NCBI RefSeq assembly: GCF_000754805.1
Contig: NZ_KN150731.1
Location: 4,141,886 to 4,205,885 of the forward strand
Source of the DNA: Yersinia frederiksenii ATCC 33641
Lineage (GTDB): Bacteria; Pseudomonadota; Gammaproteobacteria; Enterobacterales; Enterobacteriaceae
Length of the DNA: 64,000 nt
Direction: 5' to 3'
This document shows, in pieces, positions 51,391-64,000 of this stretch. The notes beneath the pieces are model-generated. The model was not told where the DNA came from and ran no database searches. It worked only from the letters and a program-made list of their open reading frames with translations. Position numbers and translations under genes: made by a program. Each line of letters opens with the position of its first letter. Position 1 is the stretch's first letter.

Positions 51391-51467
51391 GCGCCCTTAG
51401 CTCAGTTGGATAGAGCAACGGCCTTCTAAGCCGTAGGTCACAGGTTCGAGCCCTGTAGGGCGTACCA
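51391..51467 (+). tRNA. argU: tRNA-Arg (anticodon UCU)
   Basis: A complete 77-nt tRNA including the encoded CCA. The D arm (GCTC to GAGC), the anticodon stem ACGGC/GCCGT around CTTCTAA, and the T arm ACAGG-TTCGAGC-CCTGT all pair. The anticodon TCT reads AGA/AGG. The acceptor pairs GCGCCCT with AGGGCGT, giving a G-U first pair, and the discriminator is A. The body matches E. coli argU (dnaY). This tRNA is a known integration site (DLP12 in E. coli), and an integrase gene lies 175 bases downstream. Confidence 0.97.
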
Positions 51468-51642
51468 TTTTGAAGTCAACACACCTCTACTGAATTCGCT
51501 TTTTATCCTTTATACTCCCTGAAATTACTGAATTTTTCTGTCACGAGCTCTACCGAAGTCAACTCAGTTATACCCAAATCAAGTGGTATCTGGGGGCCTT
51601 TGAGGGGGCTCATCTCGTTCAATGGAAATTAGGGGCCCCTTT

Positions 51643-52857
51643 ATGCCACTAAATGCACGACAGATTGATACTGCAAAACCCAAAGAAAAAGAATACAAGC
51701 TCACTGATGGCGGTGGCCTGTATCTGTTAGTAAAGCCTAACGGTGCGAAGTACTGGCGTTTGAAGTATCGTTTTTTGGGTAAAGAAAAAAAGCTCTCTAT
51801 TGGTGTTTATCCTGATATCTCTTTGGCTGATGCTCGCTTGAAGCGAGAAGAAGCTCGTAAAGTGATCGCTTTAGGTGGAGATCCTGGAGAAGAAAAGAAA
51901 GCAGAAAAATTGGCTCAAAAGGCCAATGTCGAAAATACCTTCAAGGCTATCGCCCTGGAATGGCATGAGTACAAGCGGCCTAACTGGTCGAAAGGCTATG
52001 CCGAAGATCTGATGGAAGCATTCGAGAACGACATCTTTCCTGATATTGGTAAGCGTCCCATTGCTGAGATCAAACCACTCGAAGTGCTCAGTTCGCTGCG
52101 TAAACTTGAAAAGCGGGGTGTGCTCGATAAGCTGCGTAAAATCCGTCAGGCCTGCAATCAGGTATTCCGCTATGCCATCGTCACCGGCAGAGCTGAAACA
52201 AACCCTGCCTCTGAACTGGCAAGTGCTTTAACTGCACCTAGATCCACCCATTATCCCCATCTGTTAGCTGATGAACTCCCTGATTTCTTACAGGCTCTTG
52301 CCGCGTACTCTGGTAGCCCGATTACCCGACTGGCTACTCGTATTCTGATGTTGACCGGAGTTCGCACCGTCGAACTCCGCCAGGCTGAATGGAAAGAGTT
52401 TGATTTCGATAAACGTGTTTGGGAAGTTCCGGTCGAAAGGATGAAGATGCGTCGTCCGCACCTGGTCCCTCTGTCCGATCAAGTTGTGGCAGCACTGCGA
52501 GAGATCCAGGCAGTGACGGGCCGTTACAACCTGGTTTTCCCAGGCCGTAACGACATTACGAAGCCGATGAGTGAAGCGAGCATCAATCAGGTACTGAAAA
52601 GAATTGGGTATCATGGGAAGGCGACAGGGCACGGTTTCCGGCACACGATGAGTACTATCCTGCATGAACAGGGCTATAACACGGCATTGATCGAGTTACA
52701 GCTTGCGCATGTGGATAAGAACACCATTCGTGGGACATACAACCATGCGCAGTATCTGGAGCAGCGTAGGGAGATGTTGCAGTGGTATGGGGATTATGTG
52801 GATGGGCTAGAGAAACTGGGGGCTGGGGGCGTTGTTGAACTTCATAAGAAAGGGTGA
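51643..52857 (+). CDS. P4-type tyrosine integrase
   Basis: A 404-residue site-specific recombinase of the P4 family. The DUF4102-type arm-binding domain starts MPLNARQIDTAKPKEKEYK and has LTDGGGLYLLV and YWRLKYRFLG. The catalytic domain has the first Arg in TGVRTVELRQAEW, HGFRH with His and Arg, and the nucleophile Tyr in IRGTYNHAQY. All key residues are present, so it is probably active. The start at MPLNAR was chosen over an ATG seven codons earlier. It points away from argU, as usual for islands integrated into tRNA genes. Confidence 0.94.
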   Translation: MPLNARQIDTAKPKEKEYKLTDGGGLYLLVKPNGAKYWRLKYRFLGKEKKLSIGVYPDISLADARLKREEARKVIALGGDPGEEKKAEKLAQKANVENTFKAIALEWHEYKRPNWSKGYAEDLMEAFENDIFPDIGKRPIAEIKPLEVLSSLRKLEKRGVLDKLRKIRQACNQVFRYAIVTGRAETNPASELASALTAPRSTHYPHLLADELPDFLQALAAYSGSPITRLATRILMLTGVRTVELRQAEWKEFDFDKRVWEVPVERMKMRRPHLVPLSDQVVAALREIQAVTGRYNLVFPGRNDITKPMSEASINQVLKRIGYHGKATGHGFRHTMSTILHEQGYNTALIELQLAHVDKNTIRGTYNHAQYLEQRREMLQWYGDYVDGLEKLGAGGVVELHKKG

Positions 52858-52958: not shown

Positions 52959-55595
52959 TTGCCCCGCTTTTCAGTCAACCGACGTCAATCTGAGTTACCC
53001 CACATCAACATGCTTGTGAGTATAGAACCGAGTATATATGCTGGTTCGATAATGCTTATATACTCACGGCAGCATATGGAAGGAATACCGGCAGACCGCG
53101 AACCATTGGAAGGCGTTAAGCATTCTCACCGTGGATCTAAGATGCGTACTCCGCACTTGGTTCCTTTATCCCGGCAGGCCCTTGCAGTCCTTGAGAAAAT
53201 AAAACGGCTAAATGGTAATCGAGATTTAATTTTCGTTGGCGATCATGACCCACGTAAACCGATGAGTGAAAACACGGTTAACAATGCACTCAGGGTTATG
53301 GGCTATGACACTAAGGTGGAAGTCTGTGGTCACGGTTTTAGAACCATGGCGTGTAGTTCGTTGATTGAGTCAGGGATGTGGTCGAAGGATGCAGTAGAAC
53401 GGCAGATGAGCCATCAGGAACGTAACTCTGTGCGTGCGTCTTACATTCATAAGGCGGAGCACTTGGATGACGCGCTGGACGTTCTGGATGGGATTATCGC
53501 TGATATTGGCCGGGAGGCGAAAAAAATTGGGCAGAAAAAACGACTGCAGACACTGAAAGACCTTGATAAGTCAGCATTAGAACTGGCACATATCTGCTCG
53601 GTGCTCCTGGATGAAAATATTGACAGTGAGTTGATCCGCTCGACAATATTCGGGAAATTTCCTCCGGCCAGGCTGGCCGATACCATCGCATTTATAAACA
53701 CCATCGCCCGACCTTCTGACACCAGTTTTCACGATGAAATGGTGGAACAGTATGGGAGAGTCCGCCGCTTTCTTCCCTGTTTGCTGGAGAATATTGAATT
53801 CAGCGCCGCTCCGGCAGGTGAAACCACGCTGGAGGCTATACGCTACCTTGCGGCGATCCGGTCAACCCGGAGGCAGCATATTGATGATGCGCCAATGGCG
53901 ATAATTACCGGCCCCTGGAAACGACTCTGCTATGGCAAAGACGGCCATTTATCCCGACAGGACTATACCCTTTGTGTTATGAATAAGTTACAGGACAGTC
54001 TGCGACGTCGGGATATTTACGTCGCACGGAGCGAGCGCTGGGGAGATCCGCGGGCTAAACTTCTCCAGGGGCAGGACTGGCACACCAACAGAGTGCAGGT
54101 ATATCGCTCCCTTGGGCATCCCCTCAACGCCGGAGAGGCCGTCAATGCACTGACCCGGCAGCTTGACACTGTGTACCGACAGGTCGCTAAAAATTTTGCA
54201 GATAATCAGGCTGTTTCACTGGATTTCACCGGTAAACGCACGAAGCTGACCATTGCTCATCTGAACGGACTGGATGAGCCGCCGACGCTGAAGTTACTCT
54301 CGAAACGTATATCTGACCTGCTGCCAATTGTCGATCTGACAGAACTTCTTCTTGAGATTAACGCGCATACAGGATTTGCAGATGAATTTACCCATGCAAG
54401 CGAGGCGGGCGCGCGTATGGATGACCTGACCGTCAGTATCTGCGCGGTATTGCTGGCTGAAGCCTGTAATATTGGCATGGAGCCCTTTATTCGACCCAAT
54501 ATTCCGGCGCTGACCCGTTATCGTCTGAGCTGGACCAAACAAAATTATCTCAGGGCAGAAACGCTGGTAAAAGCAAACGCCAGACTGGTTGATTACCAGT
54601 CTACTCTGCCTCTGGCTCAGAAATGGGGCGGTGGTGAGGTGGCCTCTGCGGATGGCATGCGGTTTATTGCCCCGGTACGAACGGTACATGCAGGCCCCAA
54701 CCGAAAATATTTTGGCTCCAGTCGCGGGATCACCTGGTACAACTTCATTTCAGATCAGTACTCCGGATTTCATGGCGTTGTCGTTCCAGGCACGCTAAGG
54801 GATTCCATTTTCGTGCTGGAAGGGCTACTGGAGCAGCAAACCGGACTAAACCCGACTGAGATAATGACAGATACAGCCGGTTCCAGTGATCTGATCTTTG
54901 GCCTTTTCTGGCTGCTGGGCTATCAGTTTTCACCCCGCCTGGCCGATGCCGGGGCTTCTGTATTCTGGCGAGTGGATAAAGATGCAGATTATGGCGTACT
55001 GAATGACATCGCCCGCAATGCTGCCAATGCCCGAAAGATAGAGCAACACTGGGATGACATGATGCGCTTGGCGGGTTCTCTGACGCTGGGGACAATCCGG
55101 GCGTCAGTTTTAATTCGTTCATTGTTGAGCAGCGATCGCCCTTCAGGGTTAACACAGGCCATTATCGAAGCTGGGAAAATTAATAAAACACTGTATCTGC
55201 TAAATTATATTGATGATGAGGATTACCGACGTCGCATTCTGACCCAACTCAACCGGGGAGAAAGCAGACATGCTGTCGCTAGAGCAATTTGTCACGGGCA
55301 GAAAGGCGAGATCAGAAAACGCTATCAGGATGGGCAAGAGGAGCAACTGGGTGCATTGGGGCTGGTGACCAATGCCGTCGTGCTCTGGAATACCATTTAT
55401 ATGCAGGCCGCCCTGGCACATTTGCATGATGAGGGCGAAGTCATGAATGAAGAAGATGAAGCCCGGCTTTCGCCACTGCGGCATGCACATATCAATATGC
55501 TGGGGCACTATACATTTACGCTTGCAGAACAGGTAACAAAGGGCCAGCTCAGACCTCTTAAGCAGGCGGACGAGGCGGATGATTGGCCTTTATGA
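52959..55595 (+). pseudogene. Chimeric ORF: integrase remnant fused to Tn3-family transposase
   Basis: An 878-residue open frame made of two unrelated parts. Residues about 50-170 are the catalytic end of a P4-type integrase (MRTPHLVPLSRQAL, GHGFRTMA, NSVRASYIHKAEHLD), without its N-terminal half and first catalytic Arg. From about residue 172 the reading continues as Tn3-family TnpA (KKRLQTLKDLDKSALELA onward) to the normal end. The DDE triad D565, D638 and E768 is intact, with the spacing of the Tn3 enzyme. Full TnpA has nearly 1000 residues, so about 280 N-terminal residues with DNA-binding function are missing. The right inverted repeat is present; no left one is seen. Probably not a working transposase. 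Confidence 0.85.
53030..53065. repeat. Inverted repeat upstream of the chimeric ORF core
   Basis: GAGTATATA (53030-53038) and TATATACTC (53057-53065) are exact inverted copies around an 18-base centre; GAGTATA occurs once more at 53018-53024. Such repeated boxes near integrase genes can be arm or directionality-factor sites. That role is a guess. Confidence 0.45.
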
Positions 55596-55643
55596 CGATC
55601 TAGTTATCAAGGCAATAAAGTGCTTGGCTGGTTAAAAAACATA

Positions 55644-55681
55644 CTTAGCGTACGTTTTCGTACGGTTGGGCTTCAGACCCC
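55644..55681. repeat. 38-bp right inverted repeat of a Tn3-family transposon
   Basis: Read on the minus strand it begins GGGGTCTGAAGCCCAACC and ends ACGTACGCTAAG, 38 bases in all, the exact length and terminal pattern (GGGG...TAAG) of Tn3-family ends. It lies 48 bases after the transposase stop. It marks the transposon edge, beyond which the sequence is a different element. Confidence 0.92.
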
Positions 55682-56042
55682 TACGAAAGAAGCGCAGCGC
55701 GGCTACACCATCCCGTTTAGCGGTCAGCAGAAAGTCGATGGTCTGGCCTGCAGTATCGACCGCACGGTACAGATATTTCCAGTGGCCTTTGACTTTGATG
55801 TAGGTTTCATCCAGATGCCAGGGGCGCAGGTCGGTAGGATGGCGCCAATACCAGCGCAGGCGCTTTTCCATTTCAGGGGCATAACGCTGGACCCAACGAT
55901 AAATCGTGGTGTGGTCAACATTAACGCCTCGTTCAGCCAGCATTTCTTGGAGTTCGCGGTAGCTAATCCCGTATTTGCAGTACCAGCGAACAGCCCAAAG
56001 AATGATGTCGCCCTGAAAATGCCGGCCACGGAAAGGGTTCAT
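55682..56042 (-). pseudogene. IS6-family transposase, N-terminal fragment
   Basis: Begins MNPFRGRHFQGDIILWAVRW and continues with the typical YGISYRELQEMLAERGV and DHTTIYRWVQRYAPEMEKRL. The first catalytic Asp is in WHLDETYIKV and the second in YRAVDTAGQT. The third (Glu) and the last 100 or so residues of the normal 230-240 are missing because the Tn3 end interrupts the gene; the frame runs on into the repeat as GLKPNRTKTYAKYVF. It cannot be a working transposase. Confidence 0.92.
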
Positions 56043-56105
56043 GTGCTGCCCCTTCTGCAAAAAAGAGAGCTAATTTTATCACCACTGGCTATTTGCAGCA
56101 GTGCC
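55682..56105 (-). mobile_element. IS6-family (IS26-like) element, truncated by the Tn3 transposon
   Basis: The right end has the IS6-family inverted repeat, GGCACTGCTGCAAATA on the minus strand, ending at 56105. The inward sequence includes the transposase start. The element stops abruptly at 55682, where the Tn3 inverted repeat begins, so the other half was lost or lies elsewhere. It lies just beyond the terminator of the immunity gene. Confidence 0.88.
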
Positions 56106-56164: not shown

Positions 56165-56584
56165 TTACTTTGATTTAAGAGTATCTGTATACGGATTTTT
56201 AGTGAGGATATCATCAATTTCATGCTGAGCCTTTAATCTCCATTCATCACTAATACCCCCCATAAGATCAAGTGCTTTATTAAATGCAATTCGCCGCCCA
56301 TCTCTGTTTTCAACACGATTTTCCAGTTCATATTGAAAGGCAAATTTATAAATAAAGTCAGACATAATCCAATAAAACAGCTCATCTTTTGAGCTCGTTG
56401 TTTTTCTAAAAAACTCCACCCCTCTCTCTGCATATATATAATTGTACAACCCACCATCATAGGAAATATGTGGCCTACCATCACCAGGTGATGATGAGAA
56501 AATGTGCAAATCACTTTCAGGAATCCCCACAGACTTCCCTAAGTCGTTGACTTTTTTTTGTATCTCAGAAAAAGAGAGCAGCAT
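56165..56584 (-). CDS. cdiI: Probable CdiI-type immunity protein (Imm63-like)
   Basis: A 139-residue soluble protein without signal peptide or TM segments. The ATG lies one base after the stop of the toxin gene, so translation is coupled. SPGDGRPHISYDGG, YNYIYAERGVEF and the block KDELFYWIMSDFIYKFAFQYELENR followed by DGRRIAFNKALDLMG resemble the Imm63 family of predicted immunity proteins, as I recall it. By position, it should neutralise the CdiA C-terminal toxin in the cytoplasm. The gene is clearly AT-rich compared with the bulk of cdiA, as is usual for exchangeable toxin-immunity modules. Confidence 0.82.
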   Translation of the reverse strand: MLLSFSEIQKKVNDLGKSVGIPESDLHIFSSSPGDGRPHISYDGGLYNYIYAERGVEFFRKTTSSKDELFYWIMSDFIYKFAFQYELENRVENRDGRRIAFNKALDLMGGISDEWRLKAQHEIDDILTKNPYTDTLKSK

Positions 56585-56585
56585 A

Positions 56586-57512
56586 TTACTTTATCTCCCG
56601 TAGATATCCATTTTTCACCAGCCAGTCAACATTCACTCGGTCTTGCATATTAGGTAATATTTGGACACCTCCACCTGGCTGACCAAAAGCAGGAGCAATT
56701 TCTCCTTGTATAGCAGGCAAGGGCTTTATTACCTCATACTCATAATATTTTTCAGCTTTAGCACCCGGCGCAAGGGCACGTTGTTCGTAAGGTGTCCCTT
56801 TCGGTGCAAGGAAAGAACCATTGGGCTCTCCATATCTATCCAAACGAGTACCTACTGGGATTGTAGTTTTGACAGGATCACCTTCAAATCCCAAGTTCTT
56901 AGGCCAATCCCATCCCCCATTAGCATTCTTGAATTGGTCATAATAAGAATACCCGCCTGCCTCAAAATCGGTAACAGCACTTGAACTGTTAGGGTTACCA
57001 GATGGTGTTTTAAGGTTTGGTGAGTCAATTTTGCCAACCACTTTCGCTGCAATTTTCTCTGTGAGTACTGTACCCACTTTTGCAACACCAACGCCACCTG
57101 CAACAGCACCAATCAGATCAGACACAAGTTTACCGGCTTCAACTCCAGCATTATACGCACCACTTGCGCCAGCTTTCTGATACTCCGACTCCATCAGGTT
57201 GATGCGATCAATGTAGCTTTGCTTAACCGCATCTGACATGGTGTTAAAAATATCATCGCTCGCTATCAGTTGCTTGATTGCATCATAAGCCGCAGCAGGG
57301 TCACTGATGGATTTCGATAAACTCTCGACTGAGTCGTAAAGCCCTTGAGGAACACCAACCAGCATGCCTGCACTGTAAGCAGTATCTTGCCCTAGGCTAA
57401 TAGCATCCCATTTGACACCCACTTGCAATTGGCAGGACACACTGCCTTTACAGGCATCGAACTCTTTATCTCTATCTGAACGCTGTTGATTGCTCAGATA
57501 GTTATTCTCCAC
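56586..57512 (-). other. CdiA-CT region: VENN, entry segment and TNT-like toxin domain
   Basis: After VENN there is a segment with two cysteines (DACKGSVSCQLQVGVKWD) and helices (about 150 residues) that probably serves entry into target cells. The last 105 residues (about 56586-56903) resemble the TNT family: VGTRLDRYG, GSFLAPKGTPYEQRALAPG, YYEYEVIKPLP, APAFGQPGGGVQILP and DWLVKNGYLR. TNT domains, first seen in the Mycobacterium tuberculosis toxin CpnT, hydrolyse NAD. The conserved arginine in RLDRYG and the glutamine in GQPGGG are present. Enzyme activity is inferred. Confidence 0.82.
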
Positions 57513-60500
57513 CGCATTCTTCCCTGCCTGCGCACCCGCAACCGTATCAGCGGTGCTGTCACCGGTCAAGCCACCCGCCAGCCCTGCTGCCAGTGTTGCC
57601 AGTGCACTGACCGTCTGTTTCTGGTCTTCCGAGAGAGTGTTCTTGTCCCAGCCCATTGCCGCGATGATAATCGGTGCCATCAGTTCTGCCGTCGCCGCAC
57701 CTGCGGCACCCGCCAGCGCATTGTTACCACTGGCATACGCCGTCACCGCACCCAATACCGCGTGCGCCATGGCGTTGGCTGCCTGATTATCACCTGTACC
57801 GGCCTTTATCACTTCTGCCAGATACGGTGCCGAGGCGCCGGTCAGTGCCTGTGCCATATTGCCACCCGCCAGTCCCTGTATTGCCGCAGTGGCCGCCTGC
57901 ATCGCACGCTGTACCGAGCCGCCTGTTCCCAGACCTGACTCGTTAAACGCCTGATTGTAAGCAGTTTGGTATATCTGGTTATTGATATCTTCAGCGGTAG
58001 CTACTTTGCCCGGATTGGCTTTTTCCCACTGTTCTTTGGCTGCCGTAATATCTTCAGGCCGGACATCCTTCATCTTCTCGTTAGCCGCATTGGTCGCAAT
58101 AATCTTGCCCTGCGTGCGCGCAATATCCATCGCCTGACCGCCAATCTCACCAATCAGTTGCGCTTCTTTTAGCCGGTTTTGCTCTTTCTCTTTATCAAAG
58201 ATAGGGTTGATGCTGCCGTTGGCATTCTCGGTGTCGCGGCTCAGGTCTTCAACATTCTGCTGCTGTTTGTCCTGGTCTCGGAGGGTGATGGTACCATCCG
58301 CGATGGCCGCCTGAGTGGTGCCCTCGGCATGTCCATCATTACTCAGACCCGACAGCACCACGCCACCCAAATTACTCAGCAGGTCAGACCCGACCGGGCC
58401 ACCGGTGCTCAGGCTGCCGCCCTGATGTTCCGCTTTGAAGTCAGCCTTGTTCTCGATATCACTGAAACCCAGAGTGCCGGTATCCAGACTGTTTTTGCTC
58501 TTGTCGGCGGTGCTGGCAATCACGGCACCATCTAACTGGGTATGTTCACCGACCGTGATATCAAAGCCACCTTTGCCTGCAAAGATACCGGTCTGCTCCT
58601 GCACTGAATCATAATTGCTGTGCAGCTTGTCCTGACTCATGCTCAGGTTGGCAGAGCCGCCGCCGCCGACCACTGCCACGCTGACACCACCGCTGGTACT
58701 GGTCTGCTTCGAATCATAATTGTCGCTGTCCTGCTGACTTTGCAGCAGCAGGTCGCGGCCCACATCAACCTTCACCGTTTCGCCACTCGCCTGAGCGCCC
58801 ACTAATGAGGTATCACGGCCGCTGCTGAGCGACAGTGTGCCGCCCGTGTCAATCTGTGTTTCCGTCCAGGTCGTACCGTTACCGTGCTCATTGCCTTGTC
58901 CTTTGTTGGCATTGGCAAAGATACTCAGGCCACCGCCAGCGCTACCGAACCCCAGGCTGACACCCACACTGCCGCCACTGCTGCTGTTACTGCCGTCGGT
59001 TTTTTGCGTGTTGGCGGCACCGAGCAGCAGTAAATCACGCGCCGCATCCAGGGTAGTATCGCCACCGGCCTTGAGCTGGCTGCCTTGCACCACGATATCG
59101 CCGCTGTTCGCGGGGTTCCCATCACCGGTCGCATTGATAGTTAGATTGTTACCTGCCGTCAGGGTCGAACCGGTCACGCTGGTCTGTTCCTGATGCTGTT
59201 GTGAGGCCGATTTTTGTGAGCCTAATGAGGCGCTGATGCCGAACATGCTGGCGGTATCGCCCCCCTGCGCTTGCACCAGTTGCCCAGCCTGTACCGCCTG
59301 AGCACCACTGAGCGCAGCCTTCACGCCTTGCAATGCGGACAGCCGGCCATTGCTTTCTTCGCTGGCGGCTTTGGCGGTGGTGACGGCAGTATTCAGGGCG
59401 CTGCCCACCGTGCCGGACAGGGCCAGTGTCAGGCCACTCGATTTTTGCTCGACGGTATGGGTCTGGCTGCTCTGGTTTTCGGCCGCCAGAATACTGACGT
59501 TTTTCCCGGTCAGATTGATGTCTTTACCGGCTAACACCTCGGAGCCTTTCACCGTCAGGTTTTCACCGGCGGTCATGTTGACATTGCCCAGTAGGCTGCC
59601 GACGGTGCTGCCCACATTGGAAATCGATTGACCGGTATCGGTCATTTTGGTGCTGTTGCTGCCCACCGTGACCCCAATACCGCCGGTGCTCATCAGGCCG
59701 GACTTTTTCTGCTCATACAGGTGAGATTCGCTTTCGCTCTGCTGCGCGGTGCCGATAATTATGTTCTCTTGCGCACGCAGGTTAATATCGTTATCAGCCA
59801 CCACATTACTGCCGATGACCGCGATATTTTTACCACTGATATCCATAGAGCCGGCTGACAGCACCGAGCCGACCGCCAACGTCTGGCTAATACTGTCTTC
59901 GGTACGGGTGGTGGTGCTGGAGGCCAGTCCTTTTTTCGTGCCGGTATGATTGCGCTGCTCGTCATGCTGCTCAGTTTGGGTGGTGAGGGTGATATCGCCG
60001 CCCGCAGCCAGCTTTAGCGCACCGTCGGTTTGTACCGCACTGGCACTGAGTTTGATGTCTTTTGCTGCCTGTAAATGGATATCGCCGGTGGCATTCAACT
60101 GGCTGCCACGCAGGGTTTCATCATAGAGATTCACTGAGCTGGTGTGGCGATTGCTGGAGGATTCCCCCGTGACATGCAGACTGTCGGTGGCGGCACTGAG
60201 GTTAATATTCTGCGCCTGTATATCAATGGTGTTGGCATTAATATTAGCGCCTACGGCAGTTAAATTGTCGACGTTAGCGGTCAGCGCACCGCCAACATTC
60301 ACTTCGCTACCCAGATGGCGGATATGTTCACTGGTCGAGCTGCTACGGCCAGAATTCGCCGTTATCTGGTCGCGGGTCTCCACTGTATTGAGTAGCCAGT
60401 CGCCGCCAGTATTGACCTGCAAATCCTGGCCGACATTGAGGCCAGCGCCTTGCATGATAAAGTCACGTTCAGTATTGATAACCGCGTTGTTACTGACATT

Positions 60501-63500
60501 GATACTCGCCAGCGGCCCCAGCACGGTTTGGTTGCGCTGGACAGCCCCATTATCGCTGCTGAGTTGCTCACTGCCGGTACGCAGTATCACATCGCGGCCG
60601 CTATCAAGTTGCAGGTTAGTGGCATTTAACCGCGCGCTGGTCAGGTCAATATCGCTGTTCAACGTACTGAGCAGCATATTATTGCCAGCCTCAAGTAAGC
60701 CGCCACGGTTATTCAGGTTGATGTCCTGTGCCATGCTGATGCTCAGGTCATTGCCGGCTTTCATCGCGCCCTGATTGGTGAAACCCTGAACCTCGGTTAA
60801 GGTGATATTCTCGGCGGCAATTAATGCGCCGTTGGCCTGTAAATCGCCCGGCTTGACCCCCGCCAGATAGACCACCGGCACCAGCACAGTTTGCCCGGCC
60901 ACTTCACGGCTTTCCATCAGCACTATATTGGTGGTTAATGCCGCCATCTGTTCTGCACTAAGATGGGTACCCAGGGCAATATTGAAGGCTTTGCTGTACT
61001 CCAGGCCCGCCGCAAAGAGTGCTTCGAACTGTTCCTGCGCACTGCGGTAATCACTGGCCACAGCCTGGCCGGTCAACGCCAGCACCTGGTCGCGTACTAA
61101 ACGCTGTTCATAGGCGTTATCTCCCAACCGTTTGAATATCACATTCGGGTCATTATTCAATTGCTGGAGCACGTAGTCGGAACCGCGCCAGTTATTTAGG
61201 TTGGCAAAGGCCGGATTCGTTTCTATCAGATACTGGCTGTTGACGGTGTAGTCAGTACTGAACTGATACAGCCCGCCATTAGGCGGTGTCAGAGAAATAC
61301 CATTAAACTCGATGGCCAGATCTTTTCCGCTATTGTTACTACCCAGGGGAGGCGCAATAGCGCCGGGATTAGCCCCATTGTTGATCGTGGTGCCGCTGCC
61401 GCTGAGGGTTTGTGCAGTAATACTGGAGGCATATTGGTTGGTCGCGCGCTCACTGACTTCTGGCCCCCAATTATCACTCCACAAACCGCCTTTATAGTTA
61501 CGGTAATTCCATGTGCCACTGGAGGTGGTGCGTTCGATCAGGCGTTGTGCACTGCCCCAGCCATCCTGTTGCAGGGTGACGCCGGTGAGATTAATCTCGC
61601 CCTGTGCACTGATTTTACTCCAGAAGTTTTCCAGCGTGCCCACCTGCGGGGTCAGGTTCCCCCCCGCTAACAGTTGTGCCTCCGGGCTGATGTTATCAAT
61701 GCTGTTATAGGCGACAGTCGAGGTATAATCGGTACCAATATAATCGCTATTATTTGCCCCGCCATGTTCGGGTTCTTTGTAGCGCCCCCCCGGAATATCG
61801 GGATTTTCTGCTGTCCAGTAAGCCGAACCGGTCACGGTGTCGGCCACCACAAAGTCGCTATTGGCGGTGAGAATATGGCGGCTATTGGTCAGCGTATTGG
61901 CGTAAATCAACATATCTTTGCCGGACTCAATCAAGCCGGAAATATTGAGCACCTGAGCGGCTGTCAGATAATTACCGCTATTGTCCAGCGCGCCGGCGAG
62001 GATAACCTTGCCCATCCCTAAAATGGTGGTGGTCGCGGCGGTATCGGTGTGAGTGACGGTATCGCTGTTTTCAATCACCGGAGCCAGTAAGGCTAAAGTA
62101 CCATTTTCATCCGTGGCACCGATCAGGGCGTTCGGGCCGGAGTTAGTGATGCGCTCGCGTGCTTTGAGTGTGGCCTGTGCACTAATAATGGTGCCCGTAT
62201 TGAACAGGGTATTAACGTCGGTATTGAGCAGGCCGCTGGTCAAGATATCGCCGCTATTTATCAATGCGCCCACAGCTTTGAGATCGGCTTGCGTTGCAAT
62301 AATCGTGCCGCTATTCAGTAAGCTGTTTGAGTCGGTGCTGAGTTTGCCACCCGCGAGCATTTGCCCGCTATTGGTCACATCGCCAGCGGTGGTCAAAGTG
62401 AAATCACGCCCAGCTTGAAGGGTAGAACCCGCCAGATGGTTGAAATCACTCTGCAAGTTGATCGTCAAATCTTCACTGGCCGTCACCTTGCCTGCATTGT
62501 TGTTCAGTTGGCTCAGTTTTAAATGGATGCTATTGGCTGCCAGTACGCCGCCCTGATTATTGAGGGTTTGCCCGGCATTGGCACTGGCATTGATGGTGAG
62601 AGTACCAAGGGCGAGTATATTGGCACGCTGCGTGCTGATATCTCCCTGAGTGGCAGTGATATTCATCTCACGAGCTTGGGTGTAACTGTCACTCAGATCA
62701 ATCCGGCTGCCGGTTAATATCATGGTATCGGCGGCGAGGGTTTGTCCTTGGGCGATTAATTCCTGACGAGTATTGACCAGCAAATTACCGGATTCTGTCA
62801 GGCGGCCATCACTCTGTATGCCCGCGCCCAGCAGGCTGTTGCTGTTGCTGTTTACACCTTCGGCTTGTAGCGAGAGTGTGCCGGTAGACAGCAGAGTGCC
62901 ATCACGGTTATCAATATAACCCGGCAGATTTAGGTTGAAATCTGTGGTTCCGGTTTGCGCAATCACGCCGCCCACATTAGAGAGGGTTTGCGCGTTAAAG
63001 GTTATTTTATCTGCAATCAAGCGGGCATTATTGGTATATAACACCGAAGTCGTTGATGCCGACAGGCTCTGGCTGGCAAGCACCTCAGCCCCGGTGAGAT
63101 TGATGTCCCCGCTTTGTGCTGTGAGGGCCACATCACGGCTTTGCGTCTGACTACCGCTCAGATCGATACTGTGCGCATTGAAGCTCTGCGCCGTGCCGCT
63201 AATATTTTTCCCTTGGGCGATTAACTTGCCGCTGGCTTCTACTTTCAGTGTGCCACTGGTAATGCTGCTGTTGTCGGATTTTACGCCCGCACCTAACACA
63301 GCATTTCGGCTGCTATTAACCTCAGCCGCACGCAACGAAGTGTCACCCGCCGCCGCAATAGTGCCACTGTTAGTCAGTTTACCTGCGGTAGTGAGCTGGG
63401 TATTAGCACTGGCATAGAGCACCCCGGTATTCTCTATTTCAGCGCCGGTTTTCACCACTAAGTGCTGTGCGCTGTTGATTTGGCCACTGTTCATCAGCAT

Positions 63501-64000
63501 GCCGTCGGCGGTTATGGTGATATCGCCTGCCGAAGCTCCTATCTCTCCAGCATTGCGTACGCCGACACCAGTTTCAGTACCGATCAAGCGGATTTTACCG
63601 GCATACATGCCGCCTAAATTGGCGACATCTACCGCGACGGTAGGACGTGGGCTGCCATCGCTGGCTTTGGCATTAATGCTCTGATGCGCGGCATCCACCT
63701 GATTACGTCCGGTGGTAACATTCAGTTCTTTGGCCCAAATACCGGCATTCACTTTGACGGAACGCGCGATCAGATCAGTATGGTCCTGACGGCTGCTGTC
63801 CAGGCCGTTGCCCTGAATAACAATTTCGCCTCGTTCTACATCGTAGCCCGTCAGTTGGCCATTAGTGAGTTGTGCCTGACCGGTGGTTAATGTCGCGCGG
63901 TTGGCGTTGATAAAACCGCAGCCCTCGCAGGTAATACCTGATGGGTTGGCAATCACCACCTGCGCTTTGCGCCCGGCCACCTCGATATAACCATTGAGTT
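56586..64000 (-). CDS. cdiA: CdiA-type contact-dependent inhibition exoprotein (5' end outside window)
   Basis: A very large two-partner-secretion protein; at least 2470 residues are visible and the frame is open through 64000. The visible N-terminal side is the secretion/haemagglutination domain (AQVVIANPSGITCEGCGFINAN, a TPS hallmark). Long FHA-type beta-helix repeats follow, rich in N, G, T and S (NSGTI, LTTAGKLTNSG, GGDITLTTQTEQ). A pre-toxin region with VENN at 57501-57512 precedes a C-terminal toxin of 308 residues. The order toxin then immunity on the minus strand fits cdiB-cdiA-cdiI, with cdiB expected to the right. Filamentous haemagglutinin-like adhesion is an alternative, but VENN and the immunity gene favour CDI. 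Confidence 0.9.
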   Translation of the reverse strand, partial: LNGYIEVAGRKAQVVIANPSGITCEGCGFINANRATLTTGQAQLTNGQLTGYDVERGEIVIQGNGLDSSRQDHTDLIARSVKVNAGIWAKELNVTTGRNQVDAAHQSINAKASDGSPRPTVAVDVANLGGMYAGKIRLIGTETGVGVRNAGEIGASAGDITITADGMLMNSGQINSAQHLVVKTGAEIENTGVLYASANTQLTTAGKLTNSGTIAAAGDTSLRAAEVNSSRNAVLGAGVKSDNSSITSGTLKVEASGKLIAQGKNISGTAQSFNAHSIDLSGSQTQSRDVALTAQSGDINLTGAEVLASQSLSASTTSVLYTNNARLIADKITFNAQTLSNVGGVIAQTGTTDFNLNLPGYIDNRDGTLLSTGTLSLQAEGVNSNSNSLLGAGIQSDGRLTESGNLLVNTRQELIAQGQTLAADTMILTGSRIDLSDSYTQAREMNITATQGDISTQRANILALGTLTINASANAGQTLNNQGGVLAANSIHLKLSQLNNNAGKVTASEDLTINLQSDFNHLAGSTLQAGRDFTLTTAGDVTNSGQMLAGGKLSTDSNSLLNSGTIIATQADLKAVGALINSGDILTSGLLNTDVNTLFNTGTIISAQATLKARERITNSGPNALIGATDENGTLALLAPVIENSDTVTHTDTAATTTILGMGKVILAGALDNSGNYLTAAQVLNISGLIESGKDMLIYANTLTNSRHILTANSDFVVADTVTGSAYWTAENPDIPGGRYKEPEHGGANNSDYIGTDYTSTVAYNSIDNISPEAQLLAGGNLTPQVGTLENFWSKISAQGEINLTGVTLQQDGWGSAQRLIERTTSSGTWNYRNYKGGLWSDNWGPEVSERATNQYASSITAQTLSGSGTTINNGANPGAIAPPLGSNNSGKDLAIEFNGISLTPPNGGLYQFSTDYTVNSQYLIETNPAFANLNNWRGSDYVLQQLNNDPNVIFKRLGDNAYEQRLVRDQVLALTGQAVASDYRSAQEQFEALFAAGLEYSKAFNIALGTHLSAEQMAALTTNIVLMESREVAGQTVLVPVVYLAGVKPGDLQANGALIAAENITLTEVQGFTNQGAMKAGNDLSISMAQDINLNNRGGLLEAGNNMLLSTLNSDIDLTSARLNATNLQLDSGRDVILRTGSEQLSSDNGAVQRNQTVLGPLASINVSNNAVINTERDFIMQGAGLNVGQDLQVNTGGDWLLNTVETRDQITANSGRSSSTSEHIRHLGSEVNVGGALTANVDNLTAVGANINANTIDIQAQNINLSAATDSLHVTGESSSNRHTSSVNLYDETLRGSQLNATGDIHLQAAKDIKLSASAVQTDGALKLAAGGDITLTTQTEQHDEQRNHTGTKKGLASSTTTRTEDSISQTLAVGSVLSAGSMDISGKNIAVIGSNVVADNDINLRAQENIIIGTAQQSESESHLYEQKKSGLMSTGGIGVTVGSNSTKMTDTGQSISNVGSTVGSLLGNVNMTAGENLTVKGSEVLAGKDINLTGKNVSILAAENQSSQTHTVEQKSSGLTLALSGTVGSALNTAVTTAKAASEESNGRLSALQGVKAALSGAQAVQAGQLVQAQGGDTASMFGISASLGSQKSASQQHQEQTSVTGSTLTAGNNLTINATGDGNPANSGDIVVQGSQLKAGGDTTLDAARDLLLLGAANTQKTDGSNSSSGGSVGVSLGFGSAGGGLSIFANANKGQGNEHGNGTTWTETQIDTGGTLSLSSGRDTSLVGAQASGETVKVDVGRDLLLQSQQDSDNYDSKQTSTSGGVSVAVVGGGGSANLSMSQDKLHSNYDSVQEQTGIFAGKGGFDITVGEHTQLDGAVIASTADKSKNSLDTGTLGFSDIENKADFKAEHQGGSLSTGGPVGSDLLSNLGGVVLSGLSNDGHAEGTTQAAIADGTITLRDQDKQQQNVEDLSRDTENANGSINPIFDKEKEQNRLKEAQLIGEIGGQAMDIARTQGKIIATNAANEKMKDVRPEDITAAKEQWEKANPGKVATAEDINNQIYQTAYNQAFNESGLGTGGSVQRAMQAATAAIQGLAGGNMAQALTGASAPYLAEVIKAGTGDNQAANAMAHAVLGAVTAYASGNNALAGAAGAATAELMAPIIIAAMGWDKNTLSEDQKQTVSALATLAAGLAGGLTGDSTADTVAGAQAGKNAVENNYLSNQQRSDRDKEFDACKGSVSCQLQVGVKWDAISLGQDTAYSAGMLVGVPQGLYDSVESLSKSISDPAAAYDAIKQLIASDDIFNTMSDAVKQSYIDRINLMESEYQKAGASGAYNAGVEAGKLVSDLIGAVAGGVGVAKVGTVLTEKIAAKVVGKIDSPNLKTPSGNPNSSSAVTDFEAGGYSYYDQFKNANGGWDWPKNLGFEGDPVKTTIPVGTRLDRYGEPNGSFLAPKGTPYEQRALAPGAKAEKYYEYEVIKPLPAIQGEIAPAFGQPGGGVQILPNMQDRVNVDWLVKNGYLREIK

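What the first reader, a model, noticed from the sequence alone, without database searches (positions are those of the whole stretch)
56165..57512. Contact-dependent inhibition module with a TNT-like NAD-glycohydrolase toxin and an Imm63-like immunity protein
The C-terminus of CdiA after VENN carries the TNT signatures (RLDRYG, FLAP, GQPGGG, LVKNGYL). The following ORF starts one base after its stop and looks like a predicted immunity family. TNT was characterised as a NAD-depleting toxin in M. tuberculosis; a CDI-delivered version in Yersinia with this immunity partner would be a distinct interbacterial weapon. The toxin family call and the partnership come from motif recall, not from a search.
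Basis: partly seen in the sequence, partly recalled or inferred. Interest (0 to 1): 0.8.

Follow-up and report, generated by a model that had tools for sequence, protein, structure and literature searches.

The report
CDI toxin–immunity pair, TNT and Imm63
A bacterium of the genus Yersinia carries a contact-delivered surface toxin whose tip looks like a known NAD-destroying enzyme, with its antidote gene right behind it; this pairing is already described in other bacteria, so it is a good but ordinary example.

Summary
The window holds the 3' end of an intact cdiB-cdiA-cdiI cluster. CdiA (2631 aa) ends in a TNT domain (PF14021, E 3.8e-31, NAD-binding Arg/Phe/Gln kept). One base after its stop begins a 139-aa Imm63 protein (PF15599, E 9e-25). 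A tRNA-Arg and an integrase lie nearby, as on a genomic island. It most likely works as a CDI system that delivers an NAD(P)+ glycohydrolase, with Imm63 as antidote; activity and binding are inferred. It is not a new weapon: PF14021 CdiA toxins are in print for E. coli, the TNT-Imm63 pairing since 2012, and a TNT toxin on a Serratia Rhs protein is a proven NADase. 55 of 5426 E. coli genomes hold similar DNA; all 20 listed are annotated with Imm63 there. Modest additions: (1) the window joins TNT to an EC869-class entry domain, two E. coli modules to another; (2) toxin and immunity seem to differ in history (90% against 51% identity to E. coli); (3) the Imm63 core resembles small immunity-like proteins behind other enterobacterial TNT toxins, with an ERG motif whose basic residue may plug the active site.

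The parts
56165..56584 (-). cdiI: Imm63-family immunity protein, 139 aa
   Evidence: PF15599 E 9.3e-25, 87.1 bits, cut-off 26.7; ORF
56420..56428 (-). ERG motif of CdiI (E53 R54 G55); Arg54 proposed as the active-site plug (inference)
   Evidence: Invariant in 8 of 8 Imm63 rows of A1 and 9 of 9 rows; aligned to a basic residue in 9 of 9 small ORFs
56586..64000 (-). cdiA, 3' part; the whole gene is 2631 aa and its start lies 481 bases beyond the window
56592..56864 (-). TNT toxin domain (PF14021)
   Evidence: E 3.4e-31, profile 1-88 of 88; fungal NADase 8r17_A E 3.3e-18
56835..56837 (-). Arg codon of LDR (CT residue 226), aligned with Arg129 of AfNADase
   Evidence: alignment (residue numbers counted by hand); residue role as listed in PMC10539506
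56811..56813 (-). Phe codon of SFLAP (CT residue 234), aligned with Phe137 of AfNADase
56661..56663 (-). Gln codon of GVQIL (CT residue 284), aligned with Gln194 of AfNADase
57027..57512 (-). VENN and cytoplasm-entry domain of the EC869 class
   Evidence: 7vmc_B E 2.1e-53 over 162 residues, 7VMC being the CdiA-CT of EC869; 94 of 168 residues identical to a CdiA of E. coli 1303
57492..57641 (-). PT-VENN pre-toxin domain
   Evidence: PF04829 E 2.3e-22
55632..56060 (-). transposase fragment (142 aa, IS240-type DDE) just 3' of cdiI
   Evidence: PF13610 E 6.2e-21, profile positions 4-56 of 139 only
51391..51467 (+). tRNA-Arg (tct), possible island attachment site
   Evidence: ARAGORN; attachment role inferred, no att repeat sought
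51622..52857 (+). tyrosine integrase next to the tRNA
   Evidence: PF00589, PF22022, PF13356

Best explanation
This is an intact CDI cluster (cdiB-cdiA-cdiI), probably on a tRNA-Arg-linked island. CdiB exports CdiA. On contact with a neighbour the C-terminal region is released at VENN. Its EC869-class entry domain carries the TNT domain across the target's inner membrane through an unidentified receptor. The TNT domain then hydrolyses NAD(P)+ to nicotinamide and ADP-ribose and stops growth. Sister cells are spared because the Imm63 protein binds and blocks the toxin, probably by placing a basic residue (proposed: Arg54 of ERG) in the active site. Shown here: genes, domains, NAD-binding residues, order, conservation. 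Inferred from relatives: delivery, cleavage at VENN, NAD hydrolysis, neutralisation. Hypothesis only: Arg54.
For: Pfam hits for TNT, Imm63, PT-VENN, TPS, ESPR, ShlB and POTRA. Sequence match to solved fungal NADases with the residues at Arg129, Phe137 and Gln194 kept. Of 11 distinct loci examined that hold Imm63 at 39% identity or more, counting the window, 9 have a full TNT domain directly upstream, 1 a TNT remnant, 1 none. In 25 genomes of the genus 3 have Imm63 and all 3 have TNT beside it. A TNT-domain Rhs toxin from Serratia hydrolyses NAD+ and NADP+ (PMC10539506).
Against: No activity, binding or competition was measured. Structure models were poor (Imm63 pLDDT 61, CT 43), so modelling confirms neither fold. 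Imm63 is not tied to TNT everywhere: of 5 loci at 33% identity or less none had TNT within the stretch held, and among 295 genomes of the order only 1 of 10 with TNT also has Imm63, and 3 of 4 with Imm63 have no TNT. One genome of the genus has a TNT fragment without Imm63.
Confidence: 0.9

Rival explanations
1. The TNT domain is aimed at eukaryotic host cells, like TNT of M. tuberculosis, and Imm63 only protects the producer.
For: The founding TNT induces macrophage death (stated in PMC10539506).
Against: The domain sits after VENN and a known CDI entry domain in a cdiB-A-I cluster; relatives have the same toxin behind three other sequences in place of that entry domain and one lies in a truncated, displaced-looking module, as CDI systems do.
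Confidence: 0.05
2. The system is silent: an unexpressed or decaying island with a TNT cassette that no longer works.
For: A transposase fragment begins about 100 bases 3' of cdiI; the module is patchy, 3 of 25 genomes in the genus.
Against: cdiA, cdiB and cdiI frames are open; NAD-binding residues are kept; the window's toxin is 97% and 98% identical to those of Yersinia proxima and Serratia sp. Ag1.
Confidence: 0.08
3. Imm63 here is a chance neighbour or a replaced immunity gene that does not neutralise the present toxin.
For: Toxin and immunity differ in divergence: 125 of 139 against 70 of 138 residues shared with E. coli L016, and the same codon at shared residues in 80 of 121 against 28 of 65, Fisher p 0.003.
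Against: The same toxin-Imm63 order recurs in Yersinia, Serratia, E. coli and Pantoea; without immunity the toxin would be expected to harm the producer.
Confidence: 0.04

Closest known systems
E. coli CdiA-CT toxin type 15, TNT (PF14021), strain FCH1 (PMC11630599 Table 2; earlier named DUF4237 in PMC4927057)
   Same: CdiA-delivered TNT toxin. Two E. coli modules fetched here share 90% and 86% of toxin residues with the window and also carry Imm63.
   Different: The table lists a PtsG-type entry domain for type 15; the window has an EC869-class one. Immunity of the two modules only 51% and 54% identical. FCH1 itself was not fetched.
Ntox40-Imm63 polymorphic toxin pairs (Zhang et al. 2012, PMC3482391; 'Ntox40 (TNT)' with 'its characteristic immunity protein Imm63', PMC9503650)
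   Same: Same toxin and immunity families; filamentous-haemagglutinin carriers are listed for Ntox40.
   Different: Nothing of kind; only this lineage and entry-domain combination.
Serratia marcescens Rhs1-CT(SJC1036) and RhsI1, a T6SS TNT-like NADase (PMC10539506)
   Same: PF14021 toxin with an immunity protein directly behind it.
   Different: T6SS/Rhs carrier; 124-aa immunity protein whose family was not compared with Imm63 here.
CdiA of E. coli EC869 (7VMC, PMC9071432)
   Same: Cytoplasm-entry domain (E 2.1e-53).
   Different: Toxin is a tRNA nuclease.
Mycobacterium phage phiT46-1 cassette, WXG100-TNT with Imm63 (PMC7849713)
   Same: TNT with Imm63, as its authors describe it.
   Different: T7SS-type carrier on a phage; the window's Imm63 found no phage record at E 1e-5, so its Imm63 must be distant or the record absent.

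Membership tests
TNT (PF14021) NAD glycohydrolase | Profile score over the curated cut-off, full length | tested here: met
   107.9 bits against 27, positions 1-88 of 88
TNT (PF14021) NAD glycohydrolase | NAD-binding Arg, Phe/Tyr and Gln | tested here: met
   Aligned with Arg129, Phe137, Gln194 of AfNADase
TNT (PF14021) NAD glycohydrolase | TNT fold | tested here: inconclusive
   Model of the CT poor, pLDDT 43, not taken to a fold search; sequence match to solved TNT-type folds
TNT (PF14021) NAD glycohydrolase | Hydrolysis of NAD(P)+ | not testable with these tools
   Needs an enzyme assay
Imm63 (PF15599) | Profile score over the curated cut-off | tested here: met
   87.1 bits against 26.7, positions 2-81 of 82
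Imm63 (PF15599) | Gene directly behind a polymorphic toxin | tested here: met
   One base after the cdiA stop
Imm63 (PF15599) | Neutralises the cognate toxin | not testable with these tools
   Needs co-expression
CDI (cdiBAI) | TpsB exporter CdiB upstream | tested here: met
   ShlB E 8e-108 and two POTRA domains, 568 aa
CDI (cdiBAI) | CdiA with TPS domain, haemagglutinin repeats and PT-VENN | tested here: met
CDI (cdiBAI) | Known cytoplasm-entry domain class | tested here: met
   EC869 class; receptor given as unknown in PMC11630599 Table 2
CDI (cdiBAI) | Contact-dependent growth inhibition | not testable with these tools
   Needs co-culture

The most novel reading that the evidence does not exclude
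Imm63 and the small (about 75-85 aa) immunity-like proteins behind other enterobacterial TNT toxins are one superfamily that shares an alpha-beta core with an ERG motif. The basic residue of that motif plugs the NADase active site, as unrelated immunity proteins do in other NADases. Because the core is shared, immunity genes can be exchanged between toxins, and the window's pair is such a re-pairing: a toxin 90% like that of E. coli with an Imm63 only 51% like it.
Probability: 0.35. Interest if true: 0.45.

Novelty: new member of a known kind. Interest (0 to 1): 0.27.

Why it matters
It is a clean, complete example of a CDI-borne toxin of the NAD-depleting TNT family with its antidote, and it shows how these systems are put together: one toxin behind several entry domains, and an antidote that may have a history of its own. 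None of the papers opened here reported a bench test of a CdiA-borne TNT toxin, and the targeted searches listed none by title or abstract start; the library is partial. Sequence searches of the PDB found no Imm63 relative. The ERG comparison gives a concrete residue to test for how Imm63 blocks the enzyme.

Tried and rejected
Structure route: Imm63 modelled from 5 sequences that are 92-97% identical (pLDDT 61) and the CT from 4 (pLDDT 43). Foldseek with the Imm63 model gave no match at E 0.001 or better, best 2.5. I treat this as uninformative, not as evidence of a new fold. The pair could not be modelled as a complex with the tool given.

Viral relatives: two scans of viral contigs found none. 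In the phage collection the toxin had 3 matching records and Imm63 none.

First thought that the E. coli entry domain is related to the window's, because tblastn aligned the whole CT at 48-50%: rejected, the alignment shows that the identity lies in the toxin half. Thought that the window's entry domain might be of another class because E. coli 1303, listed in PMC11630599 with a MetI-type CdiA, matched part of it: not taken up, since the matching CdiA of that strain has the same entry sequence type as EC869.

The ERG similarity was first seen by eye and tested afterwards, so it is post hoc. With the first sets (8 and 5 rows) hhalign gave only 35.8% probability; with the enlarged sets (9 and 9 rows) 86.5%, E 4.6e-6 for one comparison, and 0 of 200 column shuffles reached its score. 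Four of the nine small rows came from a search with the other five and have no TNT domain in the stretch held. Two further hits of that search were left out: L043, as strong as those used but with an internal stop in the matched frame, and L047, weak and inside a long frame. A PDB search with the five small rows gave nothing better than E 0.029.

Full report
What is there. On the minus strand, CdiA ends at 56586 and a 139-aa ORF follows after one base. CdiA as a whole (L007:472-8367, 2631 aa) has an ESPR signal, a TPS domain, haemagglutinin repeats, PT-VENN and a C-terminal TNT domain. A 568-aa CdiB with ShlB and two POTRA domains lies upstream. The ORF behind CdiA is Imm63 (PF15599, E 9.3e-25). 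NCBIfam gave no hit for it. G+C falls from 0.54-0.61 in the CdiA body (57.5-60 kb) to 0.39-0.46 over CT and immunity gene, as one would expect of an exchangeable cassette.

Setting. A tRNA-Arg (51391-51467) is followed by a tyrosine integrase (51622-52857), a Tn3-type transposase frame and a transposase fragment, then cdiI, cdiA, cdiB. This looks like a genomic island; no attachment repeat was sought. PMC4927057 (passages seen) reports that E. [quoted passage not shown] The genome has one TNT match, one Imm63 match and five PT-VENN matches, three of them in frames over 2500 aa.

Toxin. phmmer finds solved fungal NADases (8r17_A E 3.3e-18, AfNADase 6yge E 3.8e-13). In that alignment, numbered by hand, the residues at AfNADase Arg129, Phe137 and Gln194, given in PMC10539506 as suggested to be required for NAD(P)+ binding (section 11 read), are Arg, Phe and Gln in the window. 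The Serratia TNT-like Rhs toxin of that paper hydrolyses NAD+ and NADP+ but not the reduced forms, and section 12 (read) shows that its immunity protein and an orphan homologue protect. So an NAD(P)+ glycohydrolase is the best prediction; it is not shown here.

Entry domain. Residues 1-162 of the CT match the CdiA-CT of E. coli EC869 (7vmc_B, E 2.1e-53; 7VMC identified in PMC9071432, passages seen). PMC11630599 Table 2 (passages seen) lists EC869 with entry class 13, receptor unknown, and E. coli TNT toxin type 15 with a PtsG entry domain. Searches show one toxin domain behind four different N-terminal sequences: Yersinia with Serratia sp. Ag1, E. coli, Serratia marcescens, and Pantoea dispersa. 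Whether the two E. coli modules read here have the PtsG type was not tested.

Partnership. Of 11 distinct loci examined with Imm63 at 39% identity or more (window, L002-L006, L014, L016-L019; L015 is taken as the contig of L006), 9 have a full TNT domain directly upstream, L003 a remnant, L019 none. These are not all that exist: I fetched 2 of the 55 E. coli places and 3 of the 23 plasmid records. Of 5 loci at 33% identity or less (L009-L012, L020) none has TNT in the stretch held. In 25 genomes of the genus 3 have Imm63 and 4 have TNT, one of them a fragment without Imm63. In 295 genomes of the order 4 have Imm63 and 10 have TNT, with one in common, the window's own (the handles show the same set). 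In 369 genomes of the class only the window's own had Imm63. The 14 control genomes had neither. In E. coli 55 of 5426 genomes matched toxin-immunity DNA, none over 80% of the query; 20 of the 55 were listed, and all 20 carry an Imm63-type annotation under the match. In plasmids, 23 records matched Imm63 and 16 matched the toxin; Pantoea dispersa accounts for 5 in each.

Histories. Against E. coli L016 the window's toxin keeps 125 of 139 residues, its immunity protein 70 of 138. Among shared residues the codon is the same in 80 of 121 and 28 of 65 (Fisher p 0.003); for L017 the figures are 69 of 116 and 28 of 69 (p 0.015). Against Pantoea L018 the residues differ (89 of 137, 65 of 138) but the codons do not (p 0.31). 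E. coli L016 against Pantoea gives 93 of 137 and 86 of 138, no difference. Serratia L004 against the window shows a codon difference the other way (97 of 126 and 110 of 121, p 0.003), and L002 and L006 show none. I compared 11 pairs and did not correct for that. Exchange of the immunity gene within its family is the simplest reading; faster change of the immunity gene is not excluded.

Immunity core. Five small ORFs (75-85 aa) next to other TNT domains or TNT fragments (L023, L030, L035, L037, L038) have no Pfam family over its cut-off. With four more rows found by profile, their profile aligns with residues 4-70 of Imm63: probability 86.5%, E 4.6e-6, score 36.6 against at most 19.4 in 200 column shuffles, and 13.4 for the reversed profile. 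The Imm63 ERG arginine is Arg in 9 of 9 Imm63 rows; the aligned residue in the small set is Arg in 8 of 9 and His in 1. PMC10539506 (passages) reports that three unrelated NADase immunity proteins place a basic residue (His131, Lys62, Arg153) in the active site. That Arg54 does so here is my inference. Zhang et al. 2012 (passages) describe Imm59 with a [DE]R motif, a partner of Ntox40 and at times fused to Imm63; an Imm59 protein neutralises a T7SS NADase effector in S. suis (PMC12558993, passages). Whether the small ORFs are Imm59 was not tested.

Known or new. Ntox40 (motif DRxxG) with Imm63 is tabulated in PMC3482391 (passages). 'Ntox40 (TNT)' with 'its characteristic immunity protein Imm63' is the wording of PMC9503650 (passages). 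A phage TNT-Imm63 cassette is in PMC7849713 (passages). Streptococcal T7SS loci with a TNT toxin and, behind several toxins, Imm63-like genes are in PMC13253547 (passages). A PF14021 CdiA of E. coli FCH1 is in PMC4927057 and PMC11630599 (passages). Searches for Imm63, for CDI with TNT, for CdiA with NADase and TNT, for PF14021 with CdiA, and for CdiA-CT with NADase brought up no bench test of a CdiA-borne TNT in what I opened; a wider search on CDI in Yersinia held 64 papers, of which 15 were listed and few opened, and papers outside the library were not searched. The finding is a new member of a known kind.

Noticed in passing
52959-55595 (+): One open frame joins a piece of a phage-type integrase to a Tn3 transposase DDE domain (PF00589 and PF01526).
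   Followed up: partly
L016, L017, L004, L018: One TNT toxin type behind four different N-terminal CdiA-CT sequences (counting the window's) in different Enterobacterales.
   Followed up: yes
L023, L030, L035, L037, L038: Small immunity-like ORFs (75-85 aa) next to TNT domains or fragments, without a Pfam family over its cut-off, resembling the Imm63 core.
   Followed up: partly
L031, L032, L033, L036: A second kind of ORF behind TNT domains (122-148 aa) with a motif like E-x-x-P/S-x-R-[FY] near its end; possibly another immunity family. L034 had no such ORF listed.
   Followed up: no
L003:5873-6417: Candidatus Pantoea varia keeps an Imm63 gene behind only a short TNT remnant, among other VENN modules: it looks like an orphan immunity gene.
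   Followed up: partly
L026-L029: The genome has four more PT-VENN sites besides the window's, one at about 3.49 Mb and three at 0.69-0.70 Mb, two of the latter in frames of 769 and 451 aa that could be displaced modules.
   Followed up: no
H21 and others: RefSeq names 9 of the 20 listed E. coli CdiA proteins with this tip 'effector tRNA nuclease', which does not fit a TNT domain.
   Followed up: no
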